Shown: positions 12,918 to 64,000 of the stretch, one piece after another
How the letters are laid out: the number at the start of each line of letters is the position of its first letter
How positions within the stretch are numbered: the first letter of the stretch is position 1
Source: Flavobacterium psychrophilum
Lineage (GTDB): Bacteria > Bacteroidota > Bacteroidia > Flavobacteriales > Flavobacteriaceae
Reading direction: 5' to 3'
Length of the DNA: 64,000 nucleotides
Assembly: GCA_945862065.1 (NCBI GenBank)
Contig: CAMAWT010000002.1
Coordinates: 180,474-244,473, forward strand
Translations under genes and position numbers: made by a program
The notes under the pieces: generated by a model
What the model was told of the DNA's origin: nothing
Databases searched by the model: none
The model's input: the letters and a program-made list of their open reading frames with translations, nothing else

Positions 12918-13039
12918 AAACACGATTTAATTGAAAAATGTTTCGTTTTGTTTTGATAGAAATTTTCAAATTTCATTACGAATTGTAGTATGAAATTTGG
13001 TTTGAACAAAAAACGTGATCTGAAAAGCTATTTTTCAGT

Positions 13040-13110
13040 TTTAGCCCCGATTGAACCGATATCCTGCCGAAGTCCCGAAGGGCGAGGGAGATAAAGGCGA
13101 AAGCGGGACA
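13040..13110 (+). repeat. Flavobacterial structured intergenic repeat, copy 1
   Basis: Shares with the copies at 38648, 48726 and (inverted) 51151 the frame TTTTAGCCC-GAT-GA-C-ATCCT ... GAGATA-A-GCG-AAGC-GGGA. The middle pairs as CCGAAGTCCCGAAGGGCG-like hairpin. The rest of the 284-base gap 12918-13201 holds no gene. Confidence 0.75.
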
Positions 13111-13201
13111 AAATGGCAATTGGAATGAGGTTTTGTGCTTCTAATTATTTGACAATAACGTGTTGTTATTATATGAAATTGGTTTTAAAAAAAATATTAT
13201 T

Positions 13202-38643: not shown

Positions 38644-38647
38644 GTCT

Positions 38648-38724
38648 TTTAGCCCAGATTGAAGCAAGTATCCTTTCTTGTGGTTTTTTTTAACCACAAG
38701 AAAGATACTGCGGAAAGCTGGAAT
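38648..38724 (+). repeat. Flavobacterial structured intergenic repeat, copy 2
   Basis: TTTAGCCCAGATTGAAGC-ATCCT, a perfect long hairpin CTTGTGGTT...AACCACAAG, then AAGATACTGCGGAAAGCTGGA. The hairpin arms are the best paired of the four copies. Confidence 0.8.
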
Positions 38725-38759
38725 GACCTTTATTGAAATGCCCAAGCCATTTGCTTCAA

Positions 38760-51112: not shown

Positions 51113-51150
51113 GTTTATTGGAAGCACACAAGTACGTTTTTCAAGACAAC

Positions 51151-51221
51151 CTGTCCTGCTGTACGCTATATCTCTTGTTCCGCTGCCGCTACACAAGAGG
51201 ATACCGCTTCCATCAGGGCTA
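51151..51221 (-). repeat. Flavobacterial structured intergenic repeat, copy 4 (inverted)
   Basis: Read on the minus strand: TAGCCCTGATGGAAGCGGTATCCTCTTGTG ... ACAAGAGATATAGCGTACAGCAGGA, the same frame as copies 1-3. The remaining part of the gap 51058-51384 holds the terminator, an AT-rich word repeat and the recombinase promoter. Confidence 0.75.
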
Positions 51222-51356
51222 CACTTGACGAGTTGTTTTTCAGAAGACTTTTTATTAATTAGAAAATGAGATAATTTGAAAATACGTGTTAAAAAAACAG
51301 CAAAGTTTTATGATTTTATAACTTACAATATTTTAACTATTTGTAACTATTTTTTT

Positions 51357-51364
51357 TAAATTTG
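51357..51364 (+). promoter_or_regulatory. -7 promoter element of the tyrosine recombinase gene
   Basis: TAAATTTG, 20 bases before ATG 51385, matches TAnnTTTG exactly; a TTG occurs 13 bases upstream, shorter than usual. Confidence 0.6.
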
Positions 51365-51384
51365 CATTATACAAGCCACTGTTT

Positions 51385-52422
51385 ATGAATTGGAAAGCCA
51401 AAATATTACTTCACAATGGAAACCCTAGAATAGCTATTTATTTTGAAAAAAATGTACAATTAATAGCTCGAATAAAAACCTTTGATGATGCCCGCTGGAG
51501 TACTTCAAAGAAATATTGGCATTTACCAGATACTGAAGCCAATCGTATCCATTTTAATCTACCTTTAGCCCATACTTTAGTGCCAAATGCAGAAGGAATG
51601 ACAAGTATTGAAATCTTTAAACGCTATTTATTATCAAAACGTTACAGCCCAAATACCATTAACACCTATAGTGAAGCTTTAAAATCGTTTTTAACTTTTT
51701 GCAATACCAAAGCAATAAAAGAAATTACCAATGAAGATGTTATTTCCTATAACAATGACTACATTTTAAAAAATAATTTATCGTCATCATATCAAAATCA
51801 GATAGTAAATGCAATTAAATTGTATTTTAAGATTGTAAAAGAAAAAACAATTGAAATTGATAAAATTCATCGTCCAAAAAGAGAAAAAACACTACCTAAC
51901 GTTTTAAGTAAAGAAGAAATAATAAAAATAATTGATTCAACCGAAAACTTAAAACACAAAACCTTAATAGCCTTAATTTATTCAGCTGGGCTTCGTATTA
52001 GTGAAGCGCTAAACATGAAACCAAAAGATATTGACAGTGTACGAATGTTAATTCATATAAAATATGCTAAAGGAAAAAAAGACCGATACACATTGTTGTC
52101 TGAAAAGGTATTGTTGTTGCTTCGTGAATATTATTTTGTTTACAAACCTAAAGTATATTTATTTGAAGGACAATTTGGCGGAATGTACAGTAGTAGAAGT
52201 GCTCAAATTATTTTAAAACAAACTGCAAAAAAAGCTGGGATAAGAAAACCGATAACACTTCATACACTTCGCCACAGTTTTGCAACACATTTGCTTGAGA
52301 GCGGCACAGATTTGCGTTATATTCAAGATTTATTAGGTCATAGCAGTCCGAAGACCACAATGATTTATACTCATGTAACAAACGATAGTTTGAAAAAAAT
52401 AAAAAATCCTTTTGATGTGTAA
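51385..52422 (+). CDS. Xer-type tyrosine recombinase, candidate integrase of the cassette array
   Basis: 345 residues in three parts: an N-terminal ~70-residue module not found in XerC/D (MNWKAKILLHNGNPRIAIYF...TFDDARWSTSKKYWHLP), a SAM-like core-binding domain (about 72-165: IFKRYLLSKRYSPNTINTYSEAL), and the catalytic domain with Arg204 (AGLRISEAL), Lys229, His293-x-x-Arg296 (HTLRHSFATHLL), His319 (LLGHSSPKTT) and Tyr328 (MIYTHV). IntI integrases carry an extra segment between the Lys and the HxxR box; here that interval is 64 residues against 106 in IntI1, so the segment is missing. The end (IKNPFD) resembles the IntI end (RSPLD). It is codirectional with and directly upstream of the array. 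Confidence 0.93.
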   Translation: MNWKAKILLHNGNPRIAIYFEKNVQLIARIKTFDDARWSTSKKYWHLPDTEANRIHFNLPLAHTLVPNAEGMTSIEIFKRYLLSKRYSPNTINTYSEALKSFLTFCNTKAIKEITNEDVISYNNDYILKNNLSSSYQNQIVNAIKLYFKIVKEKTIEIDKIHRPKREKTLPNVLSKEEIIKIIDSTENLKHKTLIALIYSAGLRISEALNMKPKDIDSVRMLIHIKYAKGKKDRYTLLSEKVLLLLREYYFVYKPKVYLFEGQFGGMYSSRSAQIILKQTAKKAGIRKPITLHTLRHSFATHLLESGTDLRYIQDLLGHSSPKTTMIYTHVTNDSLKKIKNPFDV

Positions 52423-52547
52423 GTTTTTTAATCTAAATTTGGAAAGCGAAATAAAAATAAGCGAAATAAATACAAGCAAAACTTTCGCAAATCTTTCCAA
52501 TTTGGAATAAAAGTAGTTTGAAAGTTTCGCATATAAACTAGTTGGCA
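52423..52547 (+). other. Putative attI-like primary recombination site
   Basis: The segment between the recombinase stop and the first cassette core GTTGGCA (52541-52547) is not an attC: it lacks the R''/L'' arm. It contains several related AAGCGAAAT / ACTTTCGC words (52441-52447, 52458-52464, 52480-52487, 52521-52530) in both orientations, and a palindrome TTCCAATTTGGAA (about 52495-52507). Direct and inverted integrase-binding words beside one core are the layout of attI. Binding is not demonstrated. Confidence 0.55.
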
Positions 52548-52611
52548 ACAATTGTAACCCAAAAAACCGCATAAAAAAACAACAAATAAACTAAAATCAA
52601 AGTGATTAAGT

Positions 52612-53067
52612 ATGAGAAAAATTAAGATTATTATAACTAATGTATTTATTTTAACATTTCTTTCAATAATTAGTTGCAAAGAAAACCGTGAGAAAACACC
52701 AGATGAATTAAAAATGGAATTACAAATATTGGAAGAAAATAACCCTTTACAATATTTAGAATTAGTGCAAACAACGATACAAAGAAATAAAATTAAAGAA
52801 GCTGGTTTATTTTCAAGTGCAAAATATGACGGATATTTAATAACGGGAAAAGTGAAGAATAGTGCAACTTTGACAAAGTTTAAGGATTTGAAACTAATGG
52901 TTGAGTTTTACTCTCAAACAAAAACGGTTATTGAAAGTAAATCTTATGTAAAATTTGAATATTTCGCACCAAATACAACTAAAGAATTTACACTAAAAGT
53001 TGACCCACCAGAAGCTATGAAAGGTTTTGGAGTTTCTGTTATTGAAGCATCACCAACTTATGAATAA
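52612..53067 (+). CDS. Lipoprotein of unknown function (cassette 1, gene 1)
   Basis: 151 residues. Lipoprotein signal with lipobox LSIISC (Cys22), then a charged linker and a beta-rich domain (GYLITGKVKNSATLTKFKDLKLMVEFYSQTKTVIESKSYVKFEYFAPNTTKEFTLKVDPPEAMKGFGVSVI) reminiscent of FxLYD-type carbohydrate/peptide-binding folds, which I cannot confirm. It starts 70 bases after the cassette core and is followed by the C10 protease gene after 44 bases. Confidence 0.8.
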   Translation: MRKIKIIITNVFILTFLSIISCKENREKTPDELKMELQILEENNPLQYLELVQTTIQRNKIKEAGLFSSAKYDGYLITGKVKNSATLTKFKDLKLMVEFYSQTKTVIESKSYVKFEYFAPNTTKEFTLKVDPPEAMKGFGVSVIEASPTYE

Positions 53068-53111
53068 CTTAACAATATATAATTAAAAATTAACATAACT
53101 AATTTAACAAA

Positions 53112-55727
53112 ATGAATAAAAAATTATTTTTTTCGGTTTTACTATCAATGTTCAGTATTGTGCTGTTTGCTAAACCTATTAGCGAAAATACAGCCAAAAA
53201 AGTAGGTGCTAACTTTTTAAGTTCAAAAACAAGCGTTTCAGCAAGTATGGCGGAACTTTCCTTGGTTTACTCCTTAAAAAACCAAACGCAAACACCTTAC
53301 TTTTATGTTTTTAATATTGCAAACAAAGGATTTGTAATTGTTTCAGGGGATGATGATGTGTTACCTATATTAGGATATTCCGATGAGGGCGTTTTTATTT
53401 CAGATAATATTGCTCCACAAGTTTTGAAATGGCTTGAAAGCTACAAAGACCAAATTCGTTATGTCATTGAAAAAAATATTAAGGCGACAGAAAAGATACA
53501 GCAAGAGTGGGAAGAATTACAAAAAGACAGAACAGTATTAAAAACACAACAAAGCACAAAGAGTACTTTAAGTACACAAGCGGTTAGCCCTTTGGTACAG
53601 GTACATTGGGGACAAAGTCCGTATGTAAATGCACAGTGTCCATCTGATGTAAATGCGGGTTCTGCTAATGGTTATCGTGCTGTTGCAGGTTGTCCAGCCA
53701 CGGCTATGGCACAAATTATGAAATATTGGGGTTATCCTGCACAAGGTGCGGGTTTTCATTCATACAACCACCCAACCTATGGTACACTTTCTGCAAACTT
53801 TGGTGCTACAACTTATAATTGGGCTTCTATGCCAAACTATGTAAATAGCTCAAATAGTGAAGTTGCTAAACTAATATATCACTGTGGGGTTGCTGTAGAG
53901 ATGCAATACGGTCCAACAAGTAGTGGCTCTTACGTGATTATGGACGGATACCCTGCTCAACAAACTTGTGAATACGCTTACAAAACATATTTTGGATATA
54001 ATCCAACGACCTTACAAGGATTAAAGCGTTCTAACTATTCAGATAGTAATTGGATAAATTTACTAAAAAATGAGTTAAATGCAAGCCGACCAATACAGTA
54101 TGCAGGTTTCGGAGGCGGTAGTGGGCACACTTTTGTATGTGACGGTTATGACAATAACAATCTTTTTCATATGAATTGGGGTTGGGCTGGAAGTTCAGAC
54201 GGTTATTTTAACTTAAATGCACTAAACCCTGGTTCGTTAGGAACAGGCGGTGGCTCTGGTGGTTACAATAATAATCAACAAGCTGTTATAGGTATTCAAC
54301 CGCTTAATGCACCACAAACATTTGATCTATCAATGTATTCCGATTTATCAACTTCACAATCAAGTTATTGGTTTGGCGGTTCAATTACAGTAACCGCACA
54401 AATACAAAATAGTGGTGCAGGGGCTTTTTCGGGCGAATTTGCCGCAGCTGTTTTTAATTCAAATGGTCAATTTGTGTCATTTTTATCATCACCACAAACA
54501 AGCAACTTGTCTACTGGTTTTTATACTACGAAAACATTTACAAATGCTGGCGGTGCGCCATTTATACCCGGTAACTATTCTGTTTCTGTTTTTTACAGAT
54601 TAAACGGAGGTTCTTGGACAATTGTAGCGGATGAAATTGGGGTAATTTTTAACGAAGTTAACTTATCTCAATTTGCAATAAATTATACGTCAAATATCGA
54701 AACTTATTCAAATTTTACTACTACCACAAATAATGGAATTCTTTATCAAGGTCAGTCAGCAACTATAAATGTGAATGCAACAAATACAAATGCAAGTACT
54801 TTTTTTGGAGATTTAAGAGTTAATTTATCTAATTTAGATGGTACTTTCGCTCAAAATATTCAAATTCTAACCGAAAATAATGGTCTTCCAAATAATTATA
54901 GTTATACAAATGGTCTTAATTTTACAGGAAATATTACGGTTGAACCAGGAACATATCTAATGGAACTAGCTTATAAACCACAAGGTACATCAAATTGGAT
55001 TTATGCTGGAAGTACTAATTTTCAAAATCCAATTTTTGTTACAGTTCAAGCACCACCATTTCAACCAGACCAATACGAAAACAATAATACTTTTGCTAAT
55101 TCTTATACTTTTTCACCCGTATTTTCAAATAATATAGCAAGTTTAAACACAACATCTTCAAATATACATATTGGTAACGATAATGACTTTTACAAAGTAA
55201 TATTACCAACAGGTTATGCTTATACAATAAGTGCTAGGCTTCACGATAGTTTTAATAGCAATAATGGAAATACTTATTCTGTAGATGCTCTTTTCTCTTA
55301 TTCAACAGATAATGGTGTAACTTGGTCAGAAGTCTTCGATACTATGCCTAATAACAATATTATTATGCAGAATGGTGGAAATATTATTTTTCGAGTTGCC
55401 AACTACTTTGAGGGAAATATGGGAACATATTTATTAGATGTTGGTATAAACAGACAAACATTAGATACTCAAGATTTTGATTTGAATAATCAAATTAAAG
55501 TTTATCCCAATCCTGCCAAAGATATTGTTAACATAAACCTTTCGGCTTTTACAAACGAAGTAAACGATATAATAATTAATAATGTACAAGGTCAAGTTAT
55601 TAGTAGAGTAAAAGTGCAAGATGAAAGTTTGGTTCAAATTCCGTTAAAAAATTTAGCCTCTGGAATTTATTTCGTACAAATTCACTCAACAAAAGGAGTT
55701 TCAACAAAAAAAATCATTGTACAATAA
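53112..55727 (+). CDS. C10 (streptopain-like) cysteine protease with T9SS sorting domain (cassette 1, gene 2)
   Basis: 871 residues. Signal peptide to about residue 20; Spi-type propeptide (KPISENTAKKVGANFL...LVYSLKNQTQTPYFYVFNIANKGFVIVSGDDDVLPILGYSDEG); peptidase C10 core with nucleophile Cys194 (VAGCPATAMAQIMKYW), His339 (GSGHTFVCDGY) and the NWGWAGSSDGYF end; two beta-sandwich domains; and a type A T9SS domain (IKVYPNPAKDIVNINLS ... LASGIYFVQIHSTKGVSTKKIIV). It should be exported to the cell surface. Large cargo for a cassette. SpeB relatives are virulence proteases, but many environmental Bacteroidota carry C10 enzymes. Confidence 0.93.
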   Translation: MNKKLFFSVLLSMFSIVLFAKPISENTAKKVGANFLSSKTSVSASMAELSLVYSLKNQTQTPYFYVFNIANKGFVIVSGDDDVLPILGYSDEGVFISDNIAPQVLKWLESYKDQIRYVIEKNIKATEKIQQEWEELQKDRTVLKTQQSTKSTLSTQAVSPLVQVHWGQSPYVNAQCPSDVNAGSANGYRAVAGCPATAMAQIMKYWGYPAQGAGFHSYNHPTYGTLSANFGATTYNWASMPNYVNSSNSEVAKLIYHCGVAVEMQYGPTSSGSYVIMDGYPAQQTCEYAYKTYFGYNPTTLQGLKRSNYSDSNWINLLKNELNASRPIQYAGFGGGSGHTFVCDGYDNNNLFHMNWGWAGSSDGYFNLNALNPGSLGTGGGSGGYNNNQQAVIGIQPLNAPQTFDLSMYSDLSTSQSSYWFGGSITVTAQIQNSGAGAFSGEFAAAVFNSNGQFVSFLSSPQTSNLSTGFYTTKTFTNAGGAPFIPGNYSVSVFYRLNGGSWTIVADEIGVIFNEVNLSQFAINYTSNIETYSNFTTTTNNGILYQGQSATINVNATNTNASTFFGDLRVNLSNLDGTFAQNIQILTENNGLPNNYSYTNGLNFTGNITVEPGTYLMELAYKPQGTSNWIYAGSTNFQNPIFVTVQAPPFQPDQYENNNTFANSYTFSPVFSNNIASLNTTSSNIHIGNDNDFYKVILPTGYAYTISARLHDSFNSNNGNTYSVDALFSYSTDNGVTWSEVFDTMPNNNIIMQNGGNIIFRVANYFEGNMGTYLLDVGINRQTLDTQDFDLNNQIKVYPNPAKDIVNINLSAFTNEVNDIIINNVQGQVISRVKVQDESLVQIPLKNLASGIYFVQIHSTKGVSTKKIIVQ

Positions 55728-56236
55728 TGAAAATAATAACGTTAATTATAATTTCGATATTTTTTATCTCGTGCAAATCAAGTGAAACAATGACAAACAA
55801 AAAAAAAGAAATTTCATTTGGTGGTAATGCCGTGTCCAGTTTGCCAATATTAGTTTACAAAACAAAAAAGGATTATAAAAATCTTGTTCCTGTTTTTCTA
55901 AATGATGATAAATTGCAAGTTGTATCGTACCCAGACCCAAAAGATGTTAAAGTAGGAAGTGATTTTTTTCTTCCTACTTCTTTACAAAAGGGTTATTTAT
56001 TGGATAACAAAGGAATAGGTATAAATGTTGCATTTTTAAAATACACTTATGAAGAATATTCAAATTTACAAACATTGCCTACACTAAAGGAATTATACAA
56101 TAACGTCATAGACAAAAATCCTTTAATTGAATTGTGTGATTGTGGTAATAAATCAAAATATGTAAATTTAGAAAAACAGTTGAATGAATACATAGACAAA
56201 GATATTATAAAGTTAAAATGTAAAGTATTGAAATAA
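55727..56236 (+). CDS. Small lipoprotein of unknown function (cassette 1, gene 3)
   Basis: 169 residues. The ATG overlaps the protease stop (TAATG), so it is translationally coupled to the protease. Lipobox IFFISC (Cys16), then a globular domain with KKDYKNLVPVFLNDDKLQVVSYPDPKDV and a C-terminal CDCGN motif. C10 proteases are often followed by a small lipoprotein inhibitor (Spi-like); whether this is one is unproved, since I see no clear Spi signature. Confidence 0.75.
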   Translation: MKIITLIIISIFFISCKSSETMTNKKKEISFGGNAVSSLPILVYKTKKDYKNLVPVFLNDDKLQVVSYPDPKDVKVGSDFFLPTSLQKGYLLDNKGIGINVAFLKYTYEEYSNLQTLPTLKELYNNVIDKNPLIELCDCGNKSKYVNLEKQLNEYIDKDIIKLKCKVLK

Positions 56237-56243
56237 CAACTGT

Positions 56244-56377
56244 TGCCAACAAGCGTTTTGCAAGATTGCGGGGTAAGTGATTAATTTCAAGGTTTTTTCT
56301 TATCTTTGTGGTCTGTGAATAACCGAAAGTTAAGGCTTCTTTAGTCCGCAACCTCGCAAAGCGCTGGGACGTTAGTG
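56244..56377 (+). other. attC-like site 1 (end of cassette 1)
   Basis: R'' TGCCAAC (56244-56250), left arm 56253-56271, right arm 56346-56364, R' GTTAGTG (56371-56377). The R'' core (TGTTGCCAAC) complements the start of cassette 1 (GTTGGCAACA at 52541). Arms pair over 19 positions with three mismatches at the array-typical places. Loop carries TATCTTTG (56301-56308). Confidence 0.85.
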
Positions 56378-56466
56378 GTCAGTTGCTGCCGAAAAATACG
56401 CAGACAAAAAACGGGACGGATTAATATCGGAAATCTGCTACTTTCATCACGATTGTTACGCCGAGA

Positions 56467-56729
56467 ACGTAAACTCGAAAAGCAGAAACTAGCAAAGCAG
56501 AAACTGGCAAAGCAGAAACTGGCAAAGCAGAAACTTGAAAAGCGGAAACTGGCAAAGCAGAAACTTGAAAAGCGGAAACTTGAAAAGCGGAAACTTGAAA
56601 GCAGAAACTCGAAAAGCGGAAGCTTGAAAACAGAAACTGGCAAAGCAGAAACTTGAAACAGAAGCTTGAAACAGAAGCTTGAAACAGAAGCTTGAAACAG
56701 AAACTCGAAAAGCGGAAACTTGAAAAATA
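56467..56729 (+). repeat. Cassette 2 minisatellite (13-15 bp units)
   Basis: The cassette of 539 bases (56372-56910) contains about 18 units of AAAGCAGAAACTGGC and its variants AAAGCGGAAACTTG and AAACAGAAGCTTG. Because early units are 15 bases, a frame with (KLAKQ)n / (KLEKR)n pentapeptides is open, but a deletion after about nine units breaks the phase, and frames on both strands stay open, so I do not call a gene. The rest of the 56237-56962 gap is attC sites 1 and 2. Confidence 0.8.
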
Positions 56730-56783
56730 GTACTCAAAAAATTGATTTTAACGAGAATATTTTTCGTCAAAATACAACCGAAC

Positions 56784-56916
56784 CACTAACAAGCGTTTGG
56801 CGTCAGTGCGGTTTTCGGTTTTTTTAGAAGCTTTGTTTTTTAATCAAAAATTTGTTTATATTTGAAAAGTCAATGCCAAAAATCCGCACCAAACGCCAAG
56901 CGCCAAAACGTTAGCG
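56784..56916 (+). other. attC-like site 2 (end of cassette 2)
   Basis: R'' CACTAAC (56784-56790) complements the start of cassette 2 (GTTAGTGG at 56371). Left arm 56793-56811, right arm 56884-56903 (one extra base in the right arm), R' GTTAGCG (56910-56916). Loop carries TATATTTG at 56857-56864 with a TTG 21 bases upstream. Confidence 0.85.
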
Positions 56917-56962
56917 GTCATTGTACCGAACCTCACGACAGACAAGAAACGAACAGAAAAAA

Positions 56963-58453
56963 ATGAAAAATATTTTTATACTTTTAATCTTCACTTTAAC
57001 GACAACCTTAACTTTTGGACAAACCAAAATAAATTACAAAGTATTTTATTCGGACAATCTTCAAAATGAAGGTTTAAAAATACAAGTTCTATTTTCTTCA
57101 AAAAAAGCATCTGACTCTACATATTTTCAATATTCAAACGAAGTTTGGGGAGAAACAAATCTTACAAACTGTTTGAAATTGATTGAAAAAGAAAACCCTA
57201 AATACACGTTTAAAATTGTAGCTGATAGCAATAGAATTGTTGTTTATCACCCAAATGAGAAAAATATTAGTTTTTCATATCACATTATACAAGACATAAA
57301 AGAAGAAAACCCTAAATCAAAAAACAGACCACTGTTACAAAAAGAGTATTTTCATATCTTAGGACAAAGTTTATTCGTTGTTCCTGAAGAAATATTTGAA
57401 CCTAAAATTGACGACCCAAAAATTATTGCAAATATTGAATGGATGAACTTTCCTAAAAACTTCATCATTCATAACACATTTGGCTCTCAACAATTAAAAC
57501 AAAACTTAAAAGTAAAACTTTGGAGTGAGTTTTACAATTCATTATTTGTTGGCGGTGATTACAGAATTAAATCATTTAACTATTTGGAAAAGCCAGTATA
57601 TTTTGCAATTAGAGGAAAATGGCTAGGAGAATATACTGATGACAACCTTTTTGAAGCATTAAAAAAGACAATTCCAACTCAAAGAGAGTTTTGGAAAGAT
57701 AATAATTTTGACTATTACACAGTTATCATAACGCCAACCATAACACAAACTGACAGCATTTATAAAGGACAAAGCATAACGGGTTCAGGTGTGAAGAATG
57801 GATTTTTAATTCAATCTTCAAACAATCCATTCAATCACTTTTCAACGATGAAATACATTTTCAATCACGAAATGATGCACGATTGGATTGGAGGGAAAAT
57901 TTCAATGCGAAATGAAGAGTTAAATTATTGGTTTAGTGAAGGATTTACCGATTATTACGCTTACAAAAATAGACTACGCAATAATGACATTACTTTGAAA
58001 GAATGGCTTGATGGTTTTAACGCAGATGTTATAAAAGCACATTGGGAAAATCCTGAAAGAAATAAACCAAATTATGTAATTAAAGATGACTTTTGGAAGA
58101 GCCGAAACGTTGAAAAGATACCTTACAGAAGAGGAGCGATTTTTGCTTTTTGGTTAGACAATCAAATTTTAAAGAAAAGTAATTATACAAAATCTCTTGA
58201 CGATTTAATGAGAGAAATTTTAAAAACTTGTACAACTGAAAATAGAAAGTTTACAGATGAACTATTTTTAGAAATTGCACAAAAATATCTTGACAAAGAC
58301 ATAACTTACTTTTTTCAAAAACACATAATTAATGGGTTAGATATTGAATTAAAAAGTGCAGATTTAATAGACGAATTTAATATTGAATACATTGAAAAAT
58401 TACCAAAAATAGTGGTTGAAAAAGAAATGAAAGATAAGTACATATTGAAATAA
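56963..58453 (+). CDS. Exported M1/M61-type gluzincin metallopeptidase (cassette 3)
   Basis: 496 residues with a signal peptide (MKNIFILLIFTLTTTLTFGQ). Zinc motif HEMMH at residues 302-306 and the downstream Glu in WFSEGFTDYYAY at about residue 326 define a gluzincin of the M1 or M61 type; the N-terminal ~170 residues form an M61-like beta domain. Expected in the periplasm or at the surface. ATG 56963 is used; an in-frame TTG 42 bases upstream lies in the cassette leader and does not begin a signal peptide. Starts 52 bases after the cassette core. Confidence 0.88.
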   Translation: MKNIFILLIFTLTTTLTFGQTKINYKVFYSDNLQNEGLKIQVLFSSKKASDSTYFQYSNEVWGETNLTNCLKLIEKENPKYTFKIVADSNRIVVYHPNEKNISFSYHIIQDIKEENPKSKNRPLLQKEYFHILGQSLFVVPEEIFEPKIDDPKIIANIEWMNFPKNFIIHNTFGSQQLKQNLKVKLWSEFYNSLFVGGDYRIKSFNYLEKPVYFAIRGKWLGEYTDDNLFEALKKTIPTQREFWKDNNFDYYTVIITPTITQTDSIYKGQSITGSGVKNGFLIQSSNNPFNHFSTMKYIFNHEMMHDWIGGKISMRNEELNYWFSEGFTDYYAYKNRLRNNDITLKEWLDGFNADVIKAHWENPERNKPNYVIKDDFWKSRNVEKIPYRRGAIFAFWLDNQILKKSNYTKSLDDLMREILKTCTTENRKFTDELFLEIAQKYLDKDITYFFQKHIINGLDIELKSADLIDEFNIEYIEKLPKIVVEKEMKDKYILK

Positions 58454-58464
58454 CAACAACGAAC

Positions 58465-58596
58465 CGCTAACAAGGTATTGCCAAAAGCGGGGCTGAAGGA
58501 ATTCTAATGAACATTTGTGCTGAAACAAAATTTAGTAATTCTAATCAACTTCAGTACTAAAAATCCCCGCCTTCGGCAATACCCAAAACGTTGTGC
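58465..58596 (+). other. attC-like site 3 (end of cassette 3)
   Basis: R'' CGCTAAC (58465-58471) complements the cassette 3 start (GTTAGCGG at 56910). Left arm 58474-58492, right arm 58565-58583, R' GTTGTGC (58590-58596). The stem is extended by CTGAAG/CTTCAG. No exact -7 match (AACATTTG only) in the loop. Confidence 0.85.
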
Positions 58597-58634
58597 GTCA
58601 TTTTAGCCGAACGAAATAGAAAAAGAATCTTTTT

Positions 58635-59126
58635 ATGAAAATTACATTTCTATCATTTATAATAATATTTTCAGCAAGTGTTTACTCTCAAGAGAAAAAG
58701 AAAAAATATGATTTTGCATTTTCTCCTGAATTAATTTCTCAAAAGGATTTATTCGGAGGTGCGAATTTGTTAATCGGAAGAGTTGTTAATGAAAAAATGA
58801 TTATTGGAATGTCAGGAGTTAGAATTGGTGTAGAAAGTAATTTAAAGAATAATAGCGACTTAATAATTGCCCCAAAAGTTGGATTTGAAACATCTGGAAC
58901 AATTTTAATAATGAGATTTTCGGCAGTAAATTATTTTCAAAATACAAAGAGTGAATTTAGATTGTTACCCGAAATTGGTTTAAGTTGGGGTGGTTTTGTG
59001 AATTTAACTTATGGTTATAATTTTAGAATAACAAATAAACAAATTAATGATTTAAGTGGACATAGATTTTGTTTAAGCTTTAATCTGAATAGAAAATTAA
59101 TAAAAGAAGGTTTACCAAGAATGTAA
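58635..59126 (+). CDS. Exported beta-barrel-like protein of unknown function (cassette 4)
   Basis: 163 residues with a signal peptide (MKITFLSFIIIFSASVYSQ). The mature part is alternating beta strands with Gly-rich turns (LFGGANLLIGRVVNEKMIIGMSGVRIGVE; IGLSWGGFVNLTYGYNFRI) and ends LIKEGLPRM. It resembles small outer-membrane proteins without a recognised family. Confidence 0.78.
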   Translation: MKITFLSFIIIFSASVYSQEKKKKYDFAFSPELISQKDLFGGANLLIGRVVNEKMIIGMSGVRIGVESNLKNNSDLIIAPKVGFETSGTILIMRFSAVNYFQNTKSEFRLLPEIGLSWGGFVNLTYGYNFRITNKQINDLSGHRFCLSFNLNRKLIKEGLPRM

Positions 59127-59139
59127 AAAAAAAACGAAC

Positions 59140-59271
59140 GCACAACAGGCGTTTGGCAAGATTGCGAATTTTGTAGTAAATTCACGTTTATTTCTCGCAA
59201 GAAATTTTATCTTTGATAGAAAATAATCGGTTCCGAAGTTCGCAACCTCGCCAAGCGCCGGAACGTTAGCA
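59140..59271 (+). other. attC-like site 4 (end of cassette 4)
   Basis: R'' GCACAAC (59140-59146) complements the cassette 4 start (GTTGTGCGT at 58590). Left arm 59148-59168, right arm 59239-59259, R' GTTAGCA (59265-59271). Loop carries TATCTTTG (59208-59215). Identical to site 10 from AAC to GTTAGC except for one base. Confidence 0.88.
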
Positions 59272-59307
59272 GTCACTTTGGTAGAACGCATAAAAAAAAC
59301 CGATTAT

Positions 59308-59850
59308 ATGATTGATACAGAAAGAAGAAAGAAACTCGCTTATCATTTGAGACATTTATCGATTGGTTTAATAACAAATGATGAATACGAAAATTATATA
59401 ACTGAAGATATTTCTTTTGGTTGGCTTCCTGAACAATATTATAGAGCTAAAGAAGCAGAATTTGATGACGCAATTATAAAACCAATGCTAGAATTAAGTT
59501 GGTTTTTATATAGCGACTTAAAGGAACATAAATTGATTGGTAAACATAAACTTACTGAAAATCAAATTAAAGATATTGCGAGATATATTTTGTTTTTACA
59601 TTCAGAAAACAAATATGAATGGAAATACATTGACCTTACAAATCCTCTAATGAGATTTTCATTTAAAGATATTATTTTAAGCGTAATAACATTAGGTAAA
59701 CATTACCAAAATAAATTAAACGAAAGAGAAAAAGAATATGCTGAATTGAAAAACAATGCAGATTATGAATATTGGCCTTTTATAAATCGTAAACAATACG
59801 AAGAAGAACTAAAAAACCAACCATTTCTAAAAGAAAAAGCGAACTGCTAA
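59308..59850 (+). CDS. Soluble protein of unknown function (cassette 5)
   Basis: 180 residues, no signal peptide, mostly helical and rich in Lys/Glu/Tyr: LAYHLRHLSIGLITNDEYENYI ... LGKHYQNKLNEREKEYAELKNNADYEYWPF. I recognise no family. ATG 59308 is preferred to a TTG 30 bases upstream in the cassette leader. The stop TAA lies in the R'' core of attC 5 (TGCTAAC). Confidence 0.75.
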   Translation: MIDTERRKKLAYHLRHLSIGLITNDEYENYITEDISFGWLPEQYYRAKEAEFDDAIIKPMLELSWFLYSDLKEHKLIGKHKLTENQIKDIARYILFLHSENKYEWKYIDLTNPLMRFSFKDIILSVITLGKHYQNKLNEREKEYAELKNNADYEYWPFINRKQYEEELKNQPFLKEKANC

Positions 59851-59979
59851 CAGCCGTTTCACGAAATTGCGGGGTTTGGGATTTATCAGAATTGGTAATT
59901 GTTGAAACTAAATTTTGTCTATATTTGTAAACAAAAGTGTTGAAAATCCGCAACTTCGTGAAGCGGCGACACGTTATGG
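59845..59979 (+). other. attC-like site 5 (end of cassette 5)
   Basis: R'' TGCTAAC (59845-59851) complements the cassette 5 start (GTTAGCAGT at 59265). Left arm 59853-59872, right arm 59948-59967, R' GTTATGG (59973-59979). Loop carries TATATTTG (59920-59927) with a TTG 18 bases upstream, the best promoter match of the array. Confidence 0.88.
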
Positions 59980-60001
59980 GCAAGGCTAAAAGACAACACC
60001 T

Positions 60002-60607
60002 ATGAAACTTAAAGACATTTTTTCGGACAATAAAACAAGAATTTTCGTGGTGACAAACCGAGACGATGAAGATGAACTTAATTGGACTATTGAGCCGACT
60101 AACTTTGACCTTTTACCAGAAGAAGAAAATATTTATTACGTAAAAGCATATCAAGTTTCGACAGACAGCACTTCCGACTGTTACCTTGGTATAATGACAC
60201 CTGAAAGAATTGCTGAGACTGTTGTTAAGAGAAAACAAAACGGACAAATTGTTGCGGAAAGTATTTACGACCAAGAACAAGAAACTATTCCGGCAGTTGC
60301 CTCTGACTGTTATGGCGACTATGAATTGTTTTATGCAAAGGGAAATCCACAAATTGGAATTGACGTTTTAAAAGAAGGACTTGCAAAAGCAGTAAACAAA
60401 AATGTAGTTGCAGAAGACTTAGGATACATTTTGCGAGACGAAGAACGAATTGAAGAAGCAATAGAAGCATTTAAAATTAGCGAGCAATTCGGACCTTCTT
60501 CCGAATATACTTTTTTAGAACTTTCAAGACTTTACAAAAGGTTAGGACAAAATTCTCTCCAATTGGAATACGAAAATAAGTTTAAAGACAATGGCGGAAT
60601 TGAATAG
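60002..60607 (+). CDS. Acidic soluble protein with TPR-like C-terminus (cassette 6)
   Basis: 201 residues without signal peptide. The first ~120 residues are an unknown acidic domain (LNWTIEPTNFDLLPEEENIYYVKAYQVSTDSTSDCYLGIMTPERIAETVVKRKQNG); residues ~125-200 form two TPR-like helix pairs (AEDLGYILRDEERIEEAIEAFKISEQFGPSSEYTFLELSRLYKRLG). Higher GC and different codon use compared with neighbouring cassettes hint at an independent origin. Confidence 0.75.
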   Translation: MKLKDIFSDNKTRIFVVTNRDDEDELNWTIEPTNFDLLPEEENIYYVKAYQVSTDSTSDCYLGIMTPERIAETVVKRKQNGQIVAESIYDQEQETIPAVASDCYGDYELFYAKGNPQIGIDVLKEGLAKAVNKNVVAEDLGYILRDEERIEEAIEAFKISEQFGPSSEYTFLELSRLYKRLGQNSLQLEYENKFKDNGGIE

Positions 60608-60625
60608 CGAACAAAGAAGCCCAGC

Positions 60626-60757
60626 CCATAACAGCACCTACCCAAAAGGCGGGGTTTCGTGCTCTAAAGATACATTTGTGGTGAATGAAACTTTTGTACT
60701 TTTAATCAACATTTGTGGTGAATCGCCCGCCCTTCGGGTAGCTGCAAAACGTTAGTG
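60626..60757 (+). other. attC-like site 6 (end of cassette 6)
   Basis: R'' CCATAAC (60626-60632) complements the cassette 6 start (GTTATGGGC at 59973). Left arm 60634-60653, right arm 60726-60745, R' GTTAGTG (60751-60757). Loop carries TACATTTG (60671-60678). Confidence 0.88.
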
Positions 60758-60781
60758 GCAATTTGTGCCGAAATGACGAAA

Positions 60782-61630
60782 ATGAAAAAAATTATACTAA
60801 TATTATTCCTAATTAATATCGTCAATTGTTATGCTGACGAGCCACGTTATTGCAATAAATTTAGAAGTTCAAACAAACTTTACGAATTTAAAATAACAGA
60901 AGTAAAAAACGATAGTATTTTAATTGACAATGTTTATTACAAGGAAAGCAGAGAAATAAAATGGGGACTTTTTAATAGAATTACAAAGAAAAAAATCTAT
61001 GAAATAGAAACCATTGCTTCTGAAAAAACTGCTTATGTATCAAATAATGGCAAATATATTGTTATAATAAACGATTGGCCAAGCGAAACTCCTGATGATA
61101 ACTTAGAAATGGTTTCTATTTATGAAAATGGTAATTTAATTAAATCTTTAAAACTAAACGATATCTTAAATTGCGGATATAATATTTCTTCGTCAGTTTC
61201 TCACTTTAGGTGGACAATTGAACAACCAAAAATATCATTTGCAACAAAAACTATTTCTTTCGTAACTTATGAACTAAACGAAATTAGAATAGATTTAACT
61301 GATGGGAAAATAACAAAAACAAAAAACGAATTAGTTGGAGAAAACTCACTTCTTGTTTACGGAAAGATAATTAAGAATAATGGTGGAAATTATAAATTTG
61401 AAGTTTGTCACAAAGTTTTCGGTACTTTATCAAGTCCAATAATTGAATTTCATTCAGAAAAAGATTTTAGACCAAATAGTTATTTCACAGTTTTAATAGA
61501 AAATGGAAACGAAATAAACGTTCAATTTAAAAAGCGAAATCTGAATGGTATTATACTAAACACTTGCTTAACAGAACCAGAAAAATTTAAAGAAAAATAT
61601 TTAGGATTCGGAAAAATAAACTGCCACTAA
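60782..61630 (+). CDS. Exported protein of unknown function (cassette 7)
   Basis: 282 residues with a signal peptide (MKKIILILFLINIVNCYADEP; Cys16 could be a lipobox Cys). Beta-rich repeats with Lys/Asn; no family recognised. An in-frame GTG at 60755 inside the core site is not used because the signal peptide starts at 60782. The stop TAA lies in R'' of attC 7. Confidence 0.75.
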   Translation: MKKIILILFLINIVNCYADEPRYCNKFRSSNKLYEFKITEVKNDSILIDNVYYKESREIKWGLFNRITKKKIYEIETIASEKTAYVSNNGKYIVIINDWPSETPDDNLEMVSIYENGNLIKSLKLNDILNCGYNISSSVSHFRWTIEQPKISFATKTISFVTYELNEIRIDLTDGKITKTKNELVGENSLLVYGKIIKNNGGNYKFEVCHKVFGTLSSPIIEFHSEKDFRPNSYFTVLIENGNEINVQFKKRNLNGIILNTCLTEPEKFKEKYLGFGKINCH

Positions 61631-61759
61631 CACAGGTTTTACGCTATTGCGGGTTTTGGGCTAAATTAAAAGTTTGTTTTGTATCTTTGAGGTCAGTTCA
61701 AAACCGAAAGTTTCGGCTTCTTTAGTCCGCAACAGTCGTAAAGCCTGGGAACGTTAGCG
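61625..61759 (+). other. attC-like site 7 (end of cassette 7)
   Basis: R'' CACTAAC (61625-61631) complements the cassette 7 start (GTTAGTGGCA at 60751) over ten bases. Left arm 61633-61652, right arm 61727-61747 (one extra base), R' GTTAGCG (61753-61759). Loop carries TATCTTTG (61682-61689) with a TTG 23 bases upstream. Loop closely related to site 1. Confidence 0.88.
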
Positions 61760-61811
61760 GTCAGCATAGAAAAACTCGGAGAAAATAGAACTTTAACTAA
61801 ATAAAAAACGA

Positions 61812-62354
61812 ATGGAAAAAGTAGAAATTCAATTAAGCAAAAAGAAAATAATCTTGTTATCAATTGGCTCATTTGTGTTTGTATTACTTGGAATATTATT
61901 CATAATTTATCCAGAAAAATTCATTTCGTACATAATGAGAAGTGAAGAATTTATAAGAATTGCTGGAATTGCAAGTGTTCTTTTCTTTGGCTCAACTGGA
62001 ATTTACGGAATATTTAAAATGTTTGATAAAAAAGTTGGATTGACGATTGACGAAAATGGAATAATAGACAATACTAACGCAACAAGCATCGGATTAATTA
62101 AATGGTCAGAAATCACAGAAATTAAAACTGAACAAGTTATGTCAACAAAGTTTTTACTGATTTTCGTTAATGACCAAAGAAATATTTTAGAAAAAGCTTC
62201 TGGAATGAAACGTAAACTTATGGAAGCTAATGCGAAAATGTATGGAACGCCAATTTCAATAACTGCAAATACATTGAAGTTTGACTTTGATAAATTGGAA
62301 AGTTTGATAAATAAAGCATTGATAGAAAATTCGGGGAAAATGCCGAACCGCTAA
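61812..62354 (+). CDS. STM3941-type membrane protein with PH-like domain (cassette 8)
   Basis: 180 residues: two N-terminal transmembrane segments (IILLSIGSFVFVLLGILFIIYP and IAGIASVLFFGSTGIYGIF) followed by a PH-like cytoplasmic domain (LTIDENGIIDNTNATSIGLIKWSEITEIKTEQVMSTKFLLIFVNDQ). This is the architecture of the STM3941 family of unknown function. The stop is in R'' of attC 8. Confidence 0.82.
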   Translation: MEKVEIQLSKKKIILLSIGSFVFVLLGILFIIYPEKFISYIMRSEEFIRIAGIASVLFFGSTGIYGIFKMFDKKVGLTIDENGIIDNTNATSIGLIKWSEITEIKTEQVMSTKFLLIFVNDQRNILEKASGMKRKLMEANAKMYGTPISITANTLKFDFDKLESLINKALIENSGKMPNR

Positions 62355-62479
62355 CAGCCGTTTGGCAAGATTGCGAATTTTGTGGTAAATTCACGTTCAC
62401 GTTTCGCAAGAAATATTATCTTAGTGGAAAATAAACGGTTACGAAGTTCGCAACCTCGCCAAGCGGCGGAACGTTGTGC
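62349..62479 (+). other. attC-like site 8 (end of cassette 8)
   Basis: R'' CGCTAAC (62349-62355) complements the cassette 8 start (GTTAGCGGT at 61753). Left arm 62357-62377, right arm 62447-62467, R' GTTGTGC (62473-62479). Loop related to sites 4 and 10 but with TATCTTAG (62417-62424), one base off the -7 consensus. Confidence 0.87.
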
Positions 62480-62524
62480 GTCAGCTTGGAGAACCAAATC
62501 TGACAAGTAAAAAACCTGTTAAAA

Positions 62525-62995
62525 ATGAATAAAAACCATTCAGAAAAATTAGATTTCTTATTAAAAGTTATATCTGAAAATAAACAATTTATAACCTCAA
62601 AGGATTTATATAAAAAACTTGATGGAAAAATTGAACAAGCAGAATTAACTTTAATCATTGATAAATTATTTTTAGATAATTATATTGAGAAAAAAATAAT
62701 TGAGGCGGATAATAATTCTAAATTGACACCGCCATATTTTTGCAGAATAACTTATCACGGTCTTTTATTTTTAGAGCATGGAGGCTTTATAAATGAAAGT
62801 AATACTTTAAAAAGAAAAAATAATTGGACTAAAGCCAAAATGATTGCGAACACGCTGAATGCCATAAGTATATTAGCCATTGCTTTTATTGGTATTTATG
62901 TTTCGTGGGATTCAAAAAAGAAAGACGAAACGATTGTTAAAAATAATATTATTATCGACAGTTTAAAAAATGAAAATAAACAGTTTAAAAAATAA
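62525..62995 (+). CDS. Membrane-anchored protein with winged-helix-like N-terminus (cassette 9)
   Basis: 156 residues: residues ~5-80 look like a winged helix (KLDFLLKVISENKQFITSKDLYKKLDGKIEQAELTLIIDKLFLDNYIEKK ... ITYHGLLFLEHGG), one transmembrane segment near residues 111-129 (NTLNAISILAIAFIGIYVSW) and a short charged coiled end. No established family recognised; related small proteins occur widely in Bacteroidota. Confidence 0.75.
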   Translation: MNKNHSEKLDFLLKVISENKQFITSKDLYKKLDGKIEQAELTLIIDKLFLDNYIEKKIIEADNNSKLTPPYFCRITYHGLLFLEHGGFINESNTLKRKNNWTKAKMIANTLNAISILAIAFIGIYVSWDSKKKDETIVKNNIIIDSLKNENKQFKK

Positions 62996-63003
62996 AGCCG
63001 AAC

Positions 63004-63129
63004 GCACAACAGCAGTTACACAAGATGCAAGGATTTAGTGGAATTGCCATTTCGCATTGAACTTTTTAATTAAATAGAAAATATGCAGTTACGAAGCCTT
63101 GCACCTCGTGTAGCTGCGGAACGTTGGCA
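63004..63129 (+). other. attC-like site 9 (end of cassette 9)
   Basis: R'' GCACAAC (63004-63010) complements the cassette 9 start (GTTGTGCGT at 62473). Left arm 63012-63031, right arm 63098-63117, R' GTTGGCA (63123-63129). Arms are unrelated in sequence to other sites yet keep the same three mismatch places. No -7 match in the loop. Confidence 0.85.
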
Positions 63130-63147
63130 GACATTTTTGACCGAAAT

Positions 63148-63720
63148 ATGAGAAACTACCTTTATTCAGACGAAGAACTATCAAATCTAAAATATATTAG
63201 AGATAATTCGCCAATCAGAATTTGGTTTGAACATATTCAATATGTTTTTGAATACGATAAATTTAATTTCACATTAGCAGTTAAATTAGCCGAAAAAATC
63301 AATCTTTCCGATTCAATTCAAAATAATCATCTGCAACAATACGCAATGAAAACCGCAATGGAATTTAAAGACAAAAAGTTTGTTGCTCAAGAAGGAAGCG
63401 AACTAGTTGTAGAAAATCCGAAAATAGATAAAATTGAAATTGCCAAGACAAAATTATATTTTGCGCAACATATAAAAAAATCTGAGAATTTTTGGAACTC
63501 AGAAAGTGGTCAAATCAACCCAAATCAAAATTCGCCAAAAAATACTGAAATAGAAATCATAGTTGACGCTGGTGTTATTTTAAAGCTTGAAAATAGAAAA
63601 ATATTTAATCTATTAATTATTGACAATGATGATGATTTTCAATTAACAAATCACAAATATCAAGAAGGCGATTTTCGAAATGAGTTAAGTGATAAATATC
63701 AATTTACAACGCTTAGTTAA
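63148..63720 (+). CDS. Soluble protein of unknown function (cassette 10)
   Basis: 190 residues, no signal or membrane segment; helical first half (SPIRIWFEHIQYVFEYDKFNFTLAVKLAEKINLSDSIQNNHLQQYAMKTAMEF), then a beta-rich acidic half (EIEIIVDAGVILKLENRKIFNLLIIDNDDDFQL). No family recognised. ATG 63148 is used, not the in-frame TTG in the core at 63124. Ends 7 bases before R'' of attC 10. Confidence 0.75.
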   Translation: MRNYLYSDEELSNLKYIRDNSPIRIWFEHIQYVFEYDKFNFTLAVKLAEKINLSDSIQNNHLQQYAMKTAMEFKDKKFVAQEGSELVVENPKIDKIEIAKTKLYFAQHIKKSENFWNSESGQINPNQNSPKNTEIEIIVDAGVILKLENRKIFNLLIIDNDDDFQLTNHKYQEGDFRNELSDKYQFTTLS

Positions 63721-63726
63721 AACGTC

Positions 63727-63858
63727 TGCCAACAGGCGTTTGGCAAGATTGCGAATTTTGTAGTAAATACACGTTTATTTCTCGCAAGAAATTTTATCTT
63801 TGATAGAAAATAATCGGTTCCGAAGTTCGCAACCTCGCCAAGCGCCGGAACGTTAGCG
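63727..63858 (+). other. attC-like site 10 (end of cassette 10)
   Basis: R'' TGCCAAC (63727-63733) complements the cassette 10 start (GTTGGCAGA at 63123). Left arm 63735-63755, right arm 63826-63846, R' GTTAGCG (63852-63858). Loop carries TATCTTTG (63795-63802). Confidence 0.88.
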
Positions 63859-63907
63859 GTCAGCTTGTGAAAAATCGACAGACTGAAAACACTATAACAA
63901 AATTTGA

Positions 63908-64000
63908 ATGGAAATATTAATAGACATTATATCTTTTTCGCTGTTTATTGGACTTATTTTGTGTCCTATATTTCTGATAAGACGAATAAACAAGACAAAA
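63908..64000 (+). CDS. Start of a membrane protein (cassette 11, truncated by window end)
   Basis: ATG 63908 opens a frame of 31 codons to the last base: MEILIDIISFSLFIGLILCP, then IFLIRRINKTK. It is a single hydrophobic segment followed by positive charges, as in a membrane anchor. It lies 55 bases after core GTTAGCG, the same geometry as the other cassettes. Confidence 0.55.
   Translation, partial: MEILIDIISFSLFIGLILCPIFLIRRINKTK

What the first reader, a model, noticed from the sequence alone, without database searches (positions are those of the whole stretch)
51357..64000. Integron-like cassette array driven by a non-IntI tyrosine recombinase in a flavobacterium
Seen: a complete tyrosine recombinase, a repeat-rich non-attC segment, then at least ten attC-like sites and eleven units, all genes in one direction and nothing else in between. 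Known: integrons consist of intI, attI and attC-bounded cassettes. Not canonical here: the recombinase lacks the IntI segment, is codirectional with the array, and the sites carry promoters. This could be an independently evolved integron or a Bacteroidota branch that current HMM-based tools score as an integrase-less cluster.
Basis: partly seen in the sequence, partly recalled or inferred. Interest (0 to 1): 0.95.

Follow-up and report, generated by a model that had tools for sequence, protein, structure and literature searches.

The report
Integron without the integron-integrase helix
A bacterium, likely a flavobacterium, carries an integron, a row of ten complete DNA cassettes that begins at an insertion site beside a recombinase, yet that recombinase lacks the extra segment that marks known integron integrases; it is predicted to move the cassettes itself, and matches to its cassette sites turned up in 185 of 247 genomes sampled from one bacterial class, Bacteroidia.

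Summary
The window has ten attC sites, ten complete cassettes and the start of an eleventh. The 9-base R'' arm of each site exactly complements the R' arm of the PREVIOUS site (60/60 variable positions; own arm 27/60; 0 of 200,000 permutations): the footprint of insertion at G^TT. The first cassette's partner, the attI, lies at 52541, 119 nt behind the recombinase stop. The recombinase lacks the IntI-specific insertion (39-40 residues in 78/78 family rows, window included; 81 in 37 canonical IntI) but groups with IntI, apart from XerC/D and two archaeal XerA (SH-aLRT 95). The arrangement recurs across Bacteroidia with a conserved attI (TATAAANNA^GTT). Three genera share an integrase+attI platform, over 99% identical, that ends at the attI before different cassettes. 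Canonical IntI was found in 1 of 247 Bacteroidia genomes, these attC sites in 185. Best reading: a widespread branch of integrons, sister to or ancestral to IntI integrons, whose I2-less integrase acts on its own attI and hairpin attC sites. That this enzyme catalyses it is inferred, not shown. A blaVEB cassette in class 1 integrons carries an attC matched by this model.

The parts
51385..52422 (+). integron-integrase-like tyrosine recombinase, 345 aa, without the IntI-specific (I2) insertion; catalytic R204, H293, R296, H319, Y328 and the KGKKDR motif present
52423..52549 (+). attI region: short direct repeats, then TTCGCATATAAACTA^GTTGGCAAC; G of the G^TT at 52541
52542..56371 (+). cassette 1 (3830 bp): genes 52612-53067 (unknown), 53112-55727 (C10 peptidase with Spi inhibitor domain and Por sorting tail), 55727-56236 (unknown)
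56242..56379 (+). attC 1
56372..56910 (+). cassette 2 (539 bp), about half of it a 15-bp tandem repeat (56471-56726); no convincing gene
56782..56918 (+). attC 2
56911..58590 (+). cassette 3: gene 56963-58453, M1-like metallopeptidase
58463..58598 (+). attC 3
58591..59265 (+). cassette 4: gene 58635-59126, unknown
59138..59273 (+). attC 4
59266..59973 (+). cassette 5: gene 59308-59850, unknown
59843..59981 (+). attC 5
59974..60751 (+). cassette 6: gene 60002-60607, unknown
60624..60759 (+). attC 6
60752..61753 (+). cassette 7: gene 60782-61630, unknown
61623..61761 (+). attC 7
61754..62473 (+). cassette 8: gene 61812-62354, unknown
62347..62481 (+). attC 8
62474..63123 (+). cassette 9: gene 62525-62995, not searched against families
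63002..63131 (+). attC 9
63124..63852 (+). cassette 10: gene 63124-63720, not searched against families; a homologue (36% identity) lies between attC sites of another species' array (L024)
63725..63860 (+). attC 10
63853..64000 (+). start of cassette 11, cut by the window end

Best explanation
This is an integron whose integrase lacks the I2 helix segment of canonical integron integrases, and that integrase likely inserts and excises the cassettes itself at its own attI and hairpin attC sites. Shown by sequence: a recombinase gene; an attI 119 nt behind it; ten cassettes with the G^TT insertion footprint; the same anatomy in many Bacteroidia; one near-identical platform in three genera joined to different cassettes at attI. 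Inferred: the recombinase binds the folded bottom strand of attC and exchanges one strand between G and TT, and replication resolves the junction, as in canonical integrons. Also inferred: cassettes enter at attI and are expressed partly from promoters inside the attC loops. The sites lack conserved one-sided extrahelical bases; instead they carry a nearly invariant A.C mismatch on the top strand, which is a T.G wobble on the bottom strand. So strand choice would rest on that asymmetry rather than on I2 gripping bulged bases. The enzyme branch is the sister of IntI or contains its root.
For: Footprint 60/60 in the window, attI included. In related loci 43 of 52 neighbour pairs match 6/6 (34 of 43 without the window's nine), own arm 1 of 52. 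In ten further genome stretches 47 of 53 pairs, own 0, permuted mean 2.0 and maximum 9, 74/74 sites coherent in orientation. attI motif TATAAANNA^GTT within 260 nt of the recombinase stop in 30 of 65 loci, window included (shuffles: mean 0.2, maximum 2; the motif was read from some of these loci), and its R' matches the first listed attC 6/6 in 15 of 23. Sphingobacterium, Empedobacter and Parapedobacter share 1006-1009 of 1010 bases over integrase+attI beside tRNA-Pro; in two of the three pairs they part at the base after the attI GTT, in the third six bases later because both first cassettes begin alike. One attC-to-attC unit (about 1.45 kb, 97%) is shared by three different arrays. Insertion absent: 39-40 against 81 residues. 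IntI plus this family form a clade against two archaeal XerA and XerC/D, SH-aLRT 95. No IntI over the cut-off in 30 relatives' genomes; 1 of 247 Bacteroidia. 199 Flavobacteriaceae genomes: attC in 117 of 121 with the recombinase, 47 of 78 without (Fisher p 4e-11). Stem covariation. Bottom strand folds more stably in 9 of 10 sites. A.C asymmetry.
Against: No recombination assay exists. Published work ties attC recombination to I2 (passages of PMC4792948 and PMC7790495). 47 of 78 Flavobacteriaceae genomes without a recombinase hit at E<=1e-50 still have attC hits (drafts, the cut-off or integrase-less clusters may explain this), and only 1 of the 10 array stretches contains a recombinase of this family (the stretches are parts of contigs). 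In 8 of 23 loci the attI did not match the first listed attC fully, and 35 of 65 loci lack the motif, among them those with divergent arrays. The 37 canonical IntI were picked by TIGR02249, a model that includes the missing segment. No genome of the window's own organism was available.
Confidence: 0.85

Rival explanations
1. The array is an integrase-less cluster of attC sites and the neighbouring recombinase is there by accident; host XerCD or an IntI acting in trans moves the cassettes.
For: attC hits also occur in 47 of 78 Flavobacteriaceae genomes without a recombinase hit; 9 of 10 array stretches show no recombinase of this family.
Against: An attI with the matching first-cassette footprint sits directly behind this gene in 15 of 23 loci tested; three genera share integrase+attI and differ from the attI on; no IntI over the cut-off in 30 genomes of relatives.
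Confidence: 0.07
2. The recombinase works on double-stranded sites like Xer or a phage integrase, with two strand exchanges, and the hairpin of attC is incidental.
For: No I2 segment; no conserved bulged bases; nearest solved structures are archaeal XerA.
Against: The stem is kept through compensatory changes while its sequence varies (16 of 18 pairs); the previous-site match begins at the G of GTT and does not extend 5' of it; the top and bottom strand differ in a conserved way.
Confidence: 0.12
3. The branch lost I2 secondarily from a canonical IntI, so it tells nothing about the ancestral state (an evolutionary rival; it does not exclude the mechanism above).
For: In the 60-row tree monophyly of the family has support 0, so its order relative to IntI is unsettled.
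Against: In the 126-row tree the family and IntI are separate groups (96 and 100); 78 of 78 family rows have a segment even shorter than in the 11 Xer rows.
Confidence: 0.25
4. The array is a fossil: the integrase once worked but no longer does.
For: Not excluded for the window itself; no close strain was available for comparison.
Against: The open frame and catalytic residues are intact and the R boxes are perfectly complementary; a relative shows recent turnover at attI between genera.
Confidence: 0.1

Closest known systems
Canonical integron (IntI, attI, attC cassettes)
   Same: attI beside the integrase gene, attC hairpins, one-way cassettes, G^TT boundaries with arm complementarity to the previous site
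   Different: integrase lacks the IntI-specific insertion; attC lacks conserved one-sided extrahelical bases; a distinct attC class (the model hits 1 of 148 genomes of the Desulforhabdus phylum although 52 of them hold an IntI over the cut-off; base composition may also differ); integrase codirectional with the array in the window clade; promoter-like motifs in the attC loops
CALIN (integrase-less attC cluster; IntegronFinder category)
   Same: how a tool that requires the IntI domain would presumably label it
   Different: an integrase-like gene and an attI are present
Archaeal XerA / NF040815 recombinases
   Same: scores above the NF040815 cut-off (230 against 220 bits); nearest PDB chains 5hxy and 4a8e
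   Different: linked to attI and attC arrays; groups with IntI rather than with two archaeal XerA
blaVEB cassette of class 1 integrons
   Same: its 138-nt attC is matched by the Bacteroidia attC model (52 bits) and the same cassette sits at the attI of a truncated I2-less recombinase
   Different: now also carried in class 1 integrons of Enterobacterales

Membership tests
canonical integron | integrase with the IntI-specific additional domain (I2, patch III region) | tested here: not met
   39 residues in the segment against 81 in 37 of 37 IntI picked by TIGR02249; TIGR02249 208 against cut-off 265
canonical integron | attI site next to the integrase gene | tested here: met
   (G^TT at 52541, match to the first cassette); conserved in relatives
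canonical integron | attC sites with R'/R'' boxes that fold into hairpins | tested here: met
canonical integron | conserved one-sided extrahelical bases on the bottom strand | tested here: not met
   in 77 aligned sites bulge columns are empty in 66-76; an A opposite a C in 75-76 instead (the alignment was fitted to the model)
canonical integron | cassette boundaries at G^TT with arm complementarity to the previous site | tested here: met
canonical integron | integrase divergent from the array (the usual layout, recalled) | tested here: not met
   codirectional in the window; divergent in the Sphingobacterium/Empedobacter branch
canonical integron | integrase-dependent excision and integration | not testable with these tools
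   no experiment
NF040815 (site-specific tyrosine recombinase/integron integrase) | score above the curated cut-off | tested here: met
   230 against 220 bits
XerC / XerD | score above TIGR02224 / TIGR02225 cut-offs | tested here: not met
   184 against 335 and 191 against 330 bits
CALIN | no integrase linked to the attC cluster | tested here: not met
   recombinase and attI adjacent

The most novel reading that the evidence does not exclude
A second, I2-less class of integron runs through the whole class Bacteroidia. It captures cassettes by folding attC without the I2 grip, descends from the state before IntI gained I2 (so attC came first), spreads between genera, and was the birthplace of cassettes now in clinical plasmids, blaVEB and probably tet(X3).
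Probability: 0.55. Interest if true: 0.97.

Novelty: new variant of a known kind. Interest (0 to 1): 0.93.

Why it matters
The field states that integrases innovated by gaining the I2 helix, that intermediates are lacking (PMC7790495, passages), and that I2 and attC pose a 'chicken-egg paradox' (PMC4792948, passages). A living branch next to IntI with attI and attC but no I2 makes that directly testable. It would also mean that most genomes of a major bacterial class hold gene-capture sites that tools requiring the IntI domain would not tie to an integrase: 185 of 247 have at least one site, 156 two or more (my hand count). IntegronFinder 2.0 reports for Bacteroidetes first only integrases without cassettes and then a complete integron in Salinibacter (PMC9024848, passages); a review lists Bacteroidota among phyla with integrons (PMC8618304, passages). 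It offers a candidate mechanism for the unexplained homology-independent insertion of a gene with a constant 140-bp attC-like tail in Riemerella (PMC13148043, section 11 read); whether Riemerella has such an integrase was not checked.

Tried and rejected
Tried without result: single-sequence AlphaFold (pLDDT 42), replaced by an alignment-based model (86.3). The first attI pattern was mis-spaced and found 3 of 69 loci, a second 3 of 65; the corrected one found 30 of 65. Homologues of twelve window proteins (eleven of the array) in all loci held at that time: only cassette 10 had one. Phage records: the 8 rows shown of 798 records cover 72-76% of the query at 40-43% identity; 5 of 798 have a best place at 60-80% identity and were not looked at. 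Rejected: 'independently evolved'; 'IntI elsewhere in the genome' (relatives only); 'chance repeats'. The tet(X3) context does not show a clean one-cassette footprint: the R' before it (GTTATGTGC) and the R'' after it (GCTACTAAC) do not match, and R2 finds no site there, so its origin from such an integron is only a suggestion.

Limits of counts: group names Bacteroidia, Flavobacteriaceae, Bacteroidota and Desulfobacterota are my inference, as the genome search names no groups ('class', 'family', 'phylum' of G002 = the genome of Flavobacterium sedimenticola, and phylum of G031 = Desulforhabdus). Those searches scored only the best 7-14 (TIGR02249), 10 (protein) or 13-22 (R2) candidates per genome. 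One search kept gaps under 2500 bp. Searches left out L036, L051, L073 and L079 (broken or fragment frames) and used a re-fetch (L164) for L080; the 78 family rows hold 76 distinct proteins. One search used 27 of the 78 family rows, 19 of the 37 IntI plus 2A3V, 10 of 11 Xer (L153 left out as a long branch) plus E. coli XerD, and two XerA. One search left out the same four loci and those with under 260 nt behind the gene, and used A4 (150 of 200 hits). One search skipped 5 sites without a clear AAC/GTT and gaps of 4000 bp or more; its ten stretches were chosen because they held clustered strong hits; two of them share one cassette with a locus used to build the model. The 30 genomes were my choice from 80; 29 had an attC hit.

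Papers: PMC9024848, PMC9668308, PMC8618304, PMC7790495, PMC4792948 and PMC8946536 seen as passages; PMC13148043 passages and section 11; all others only as search listings. I found no description of an I2-less integron in print in the searches, which cover open-access PMC only.
Full report
OBSERVATION. The region 51357-64000 holds a complete tyrosine recombinase (51385-52422) followed by ten attC-like sites. Their alignment and a structure prediction on it give a stem of 18 pairs, 16 of which have sequences with both sides changed and the pair kept. A covariance model (R1) finds in 64 kb these ten sites at 104-137 bits and, at E<=1, six of the same palindromes on the other strand at 26-34 bits.

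FOOTPRINT. In an integron the R' arm seen behind an attC belongs to the next cassette, because insertion cuts between G and TT (recalled). The prediction is that the R'' arm of each cassette is complementary to the R' of the previous site rather than to its own. In the window this holds at 60 of 60 variable positions (4-9 of the arm, ten cassettes), against 27 of 60 for the own R'; 0 of 200,000 permutations reach it (mean 32, maximum 59). The first cassette predicts where attI must be: GTTGGCAAC occurs once on the + strand of the window, at 52541, 119 nt behind the recombinase stop. Cassette 1 therefore runs 52542-56371 and holds three genes, among them a C10 peptidase with a Por sorting tail.

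TREE. With 126 rows the family (96), IntI (100) and bacterial Xer (86) are separate groups. With two archaeal XerA chains and E. coli XerD added and fewer rows (60), IntI plus this family form a clade with support 95, but the family's own monophyly then has support 0, so it may be sister to IntI or the stock IntI came from. Both are quick searches with SH-aLRT only.

RELATED LOCI. The one scan of GTDB genomes kept the best 80 loci, nearly all Bacteroidota. A second model (R2, from 77 sites) gives 200 hits at E<=0.01 in the window and 48 of these 80 loci (my count; a few hits are the reverse strand of the same palindrome, and many of the other loci end close to the gene). In most the array follows the recombinase in the same direction; in Sphingobacterium, Empedobacter, Parapedobacter, Avrilella and two more (L072, L078) the hits run the other way. 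Of 52 neighbour pairs (nine from the window) 43 match the previous R' at 6/6, 1 its own. A conserved attI, TATAAANNA^GTT, lies within 260 nt of the stop in 30 of 65 loci against 0.2 expected in shuffles; the motif was read from some of these loci, so the count describes rather than tests it. Its variable bases match the first listed attC fully in 15 of 23; in most of the 8 misses the first listed site lies 2 kb or more away.

CASSETTE TURNOVER. Three genera (Sphingobacterium sp. CZ-2, Empedobacter brevis, Parapedobacter sp. SGR-10) share the integrase and attI at 1006-1009 of 1010 bases, next to tRNA-Pro. Sphingobacterium parts from both others at the base right after the attI GTT; the other two share six more bases because both first cassettes begin alike. 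This is what insertion of different cassettes at one attI would leave, and it shows spread between families. A unit of about 1.45 kb that runs from one attC to the next is shared at 97% by three arrays of different genomes (L064, L182, L186, sites).

PREVALENCE AND CONTROLS. Group names are inferred (see Tried and rejected). R2 at E<=1e-5: 164 of 199 Flavobacteriaceae genomes, 185 of 247 Bacteroidia genomes, 1 of 148 genomes of the Desulforhabdus phylum, although 52 of these 148 hold an IntI over the cut-off. These control genomes may differ in base composition, so part of the contrast could come from that. IntI over the cut-off: 84 of 296 genomes of the phylum of Flavobacterium as a whole but 1 of 247 of its class and 0 of 30 genomes of relatives. 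In the 199 Flavobacteriaceae genomes attC occurs in 117 of 121 with the recombinase (E<=1e-50) and in 47 of 78 without; five or more attC in 95 of 121 against 20 of 78. Ten further stretches with clustered hits gave 47 of 53 neighbour pairs at 6/6, 0 own, permuted mean 2.0 and maximum 9, and 74 of 74 sites in one direction per stretch; one of the ten contains a recombinase of this family.

SITE ARCHITECTURE. In 77 aligned sites the columns where a one-sided bulge could sit are empty in 66-76; at one place an A stands opposite a C in 75-76 of 77, a mismatch on the top strand and a T.G wobble on the bottom strand; at another there is a T.G on top (A.C on the bottom) in 36 of 77. The alignment was fitted to the model. 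The bottom strand folds more stably in 9 of 10 window sites. Published work ties canonical strand choice to extrahelical bases and attC recognition to I2 (passages of PMC4792948; PMC8946536). Enzyme without I2 and sites without conserved bulges fit each other; this is inference.

EXPRESSION. The loops of 7 of 10 window sites contain TAnnTTTG on the array strand, 0 on the other, shuffle mean 0.8, maximum 4; in other loci 23 of 140 on the array strand and 12 on the other, shuffle mean 8.3, maximum 15. That this is a flavobacterial promoter element is recalled, not from a call. Sites 4 and 10 are near copies (132 of 137 columns), so the ten are not independent.

CLINICAL LINK. A 5'-truncated recombinase of this family on a Klebsiella plasmid is followed by TTCGGATATTAGGGA^GTTAGCGGT and then blaVEB-3. 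The blaVEB sequence shared with two other plasmids begins at the same G^TT (one base earlier by chance in one case): in one the segment before it reads as attI1 (recognised from memory) near intI1, with an IS10 element between, in the other it follows a cmlA5 cassette. The blaVEB attC is the only site that R2 finds in those two stretches at E<=10 (52 bits); the sites of the neighbouring cassettes were not located by other means. tpnF beside tet(X3) is another truncated member, but its footprint is not clean.

HOW IT WORKS. Shown: anatomy, footprint, conservation, turnover at attI. Inferred: that this recombinase is the catalyst, that the bottom strand hairpin is the substrate, that replication resolves the junction. 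Verdict: an integron in layout and, by inference, function, but not a canonical one, because the defining IntI domain was tested and is absent: a new variant of a known kind, on a branch beside or below all IntI sampled here.

Noticed in passing
L176 (CP006657.1 147372-157115), 4501-6263: Truncated I2-less recombinase plus an attI of this type directly before blaVEB-3 on a Klebsiella plasmid; the same blaVEB cassette in class 1 integrons (L179, L180) starts at the same G^TT and carries an attC matched by the Bacteroidia model.
   Followed up: yes
L174 4522-6543, L175 4522-6720: tpnF beside tet(X3) is a 5'-truncated member of this family; tet(X3) is followed by what reads as the left half of an attC of this type (by eye; no model hit) before the ISCR2 side.
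   Followed up: partly
L163 (G033:C289) and L164 (G031:C20): In a Planctomycetota MAG and a Desulforhabdus genome an I2-less relative lies within about 1 kb of a canonical IntI or a piece of one; a paired system or a hand-over between the two types.
   Followed up: no
L060, L061, L062: A nearly identical integrase+attI module of about 1.27 kb lies beside tRNA-Pro in three genera of two families; how the platform itself moves is unknown.
   Followed up: partly
L064 2924-4379, L182 3991-5446, L186 17762-19215: One attC-to-attC unit of about 1.45 kb is shared at 97% by arrays of three genomes.
   Followed up: no
L177 (NZ_CP041688.1): A Chryseobacterium plasmid carries a complete I2-less integron with an attI motif and three attC.
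   Followed up: partly
window 51148-51224 (-), 38647-38728 (+), 13039-13114 (+): Three Flavo-1 RNA matches, one directly upstream of the integrase.
   Followed up: no
window 56471-56726: About half of cassette 2 is a 15-bp tandem repeat (17.7 copies) and it has no convincing gene.
   Followed up: no
window 51385-51594 (protein residues 1-70): An N-terminal domain of about 70 residues precedes the SAM-like domain in the window clade and is absent in the Sphingobacterium branch; no Pfam match.
   Followed up: no
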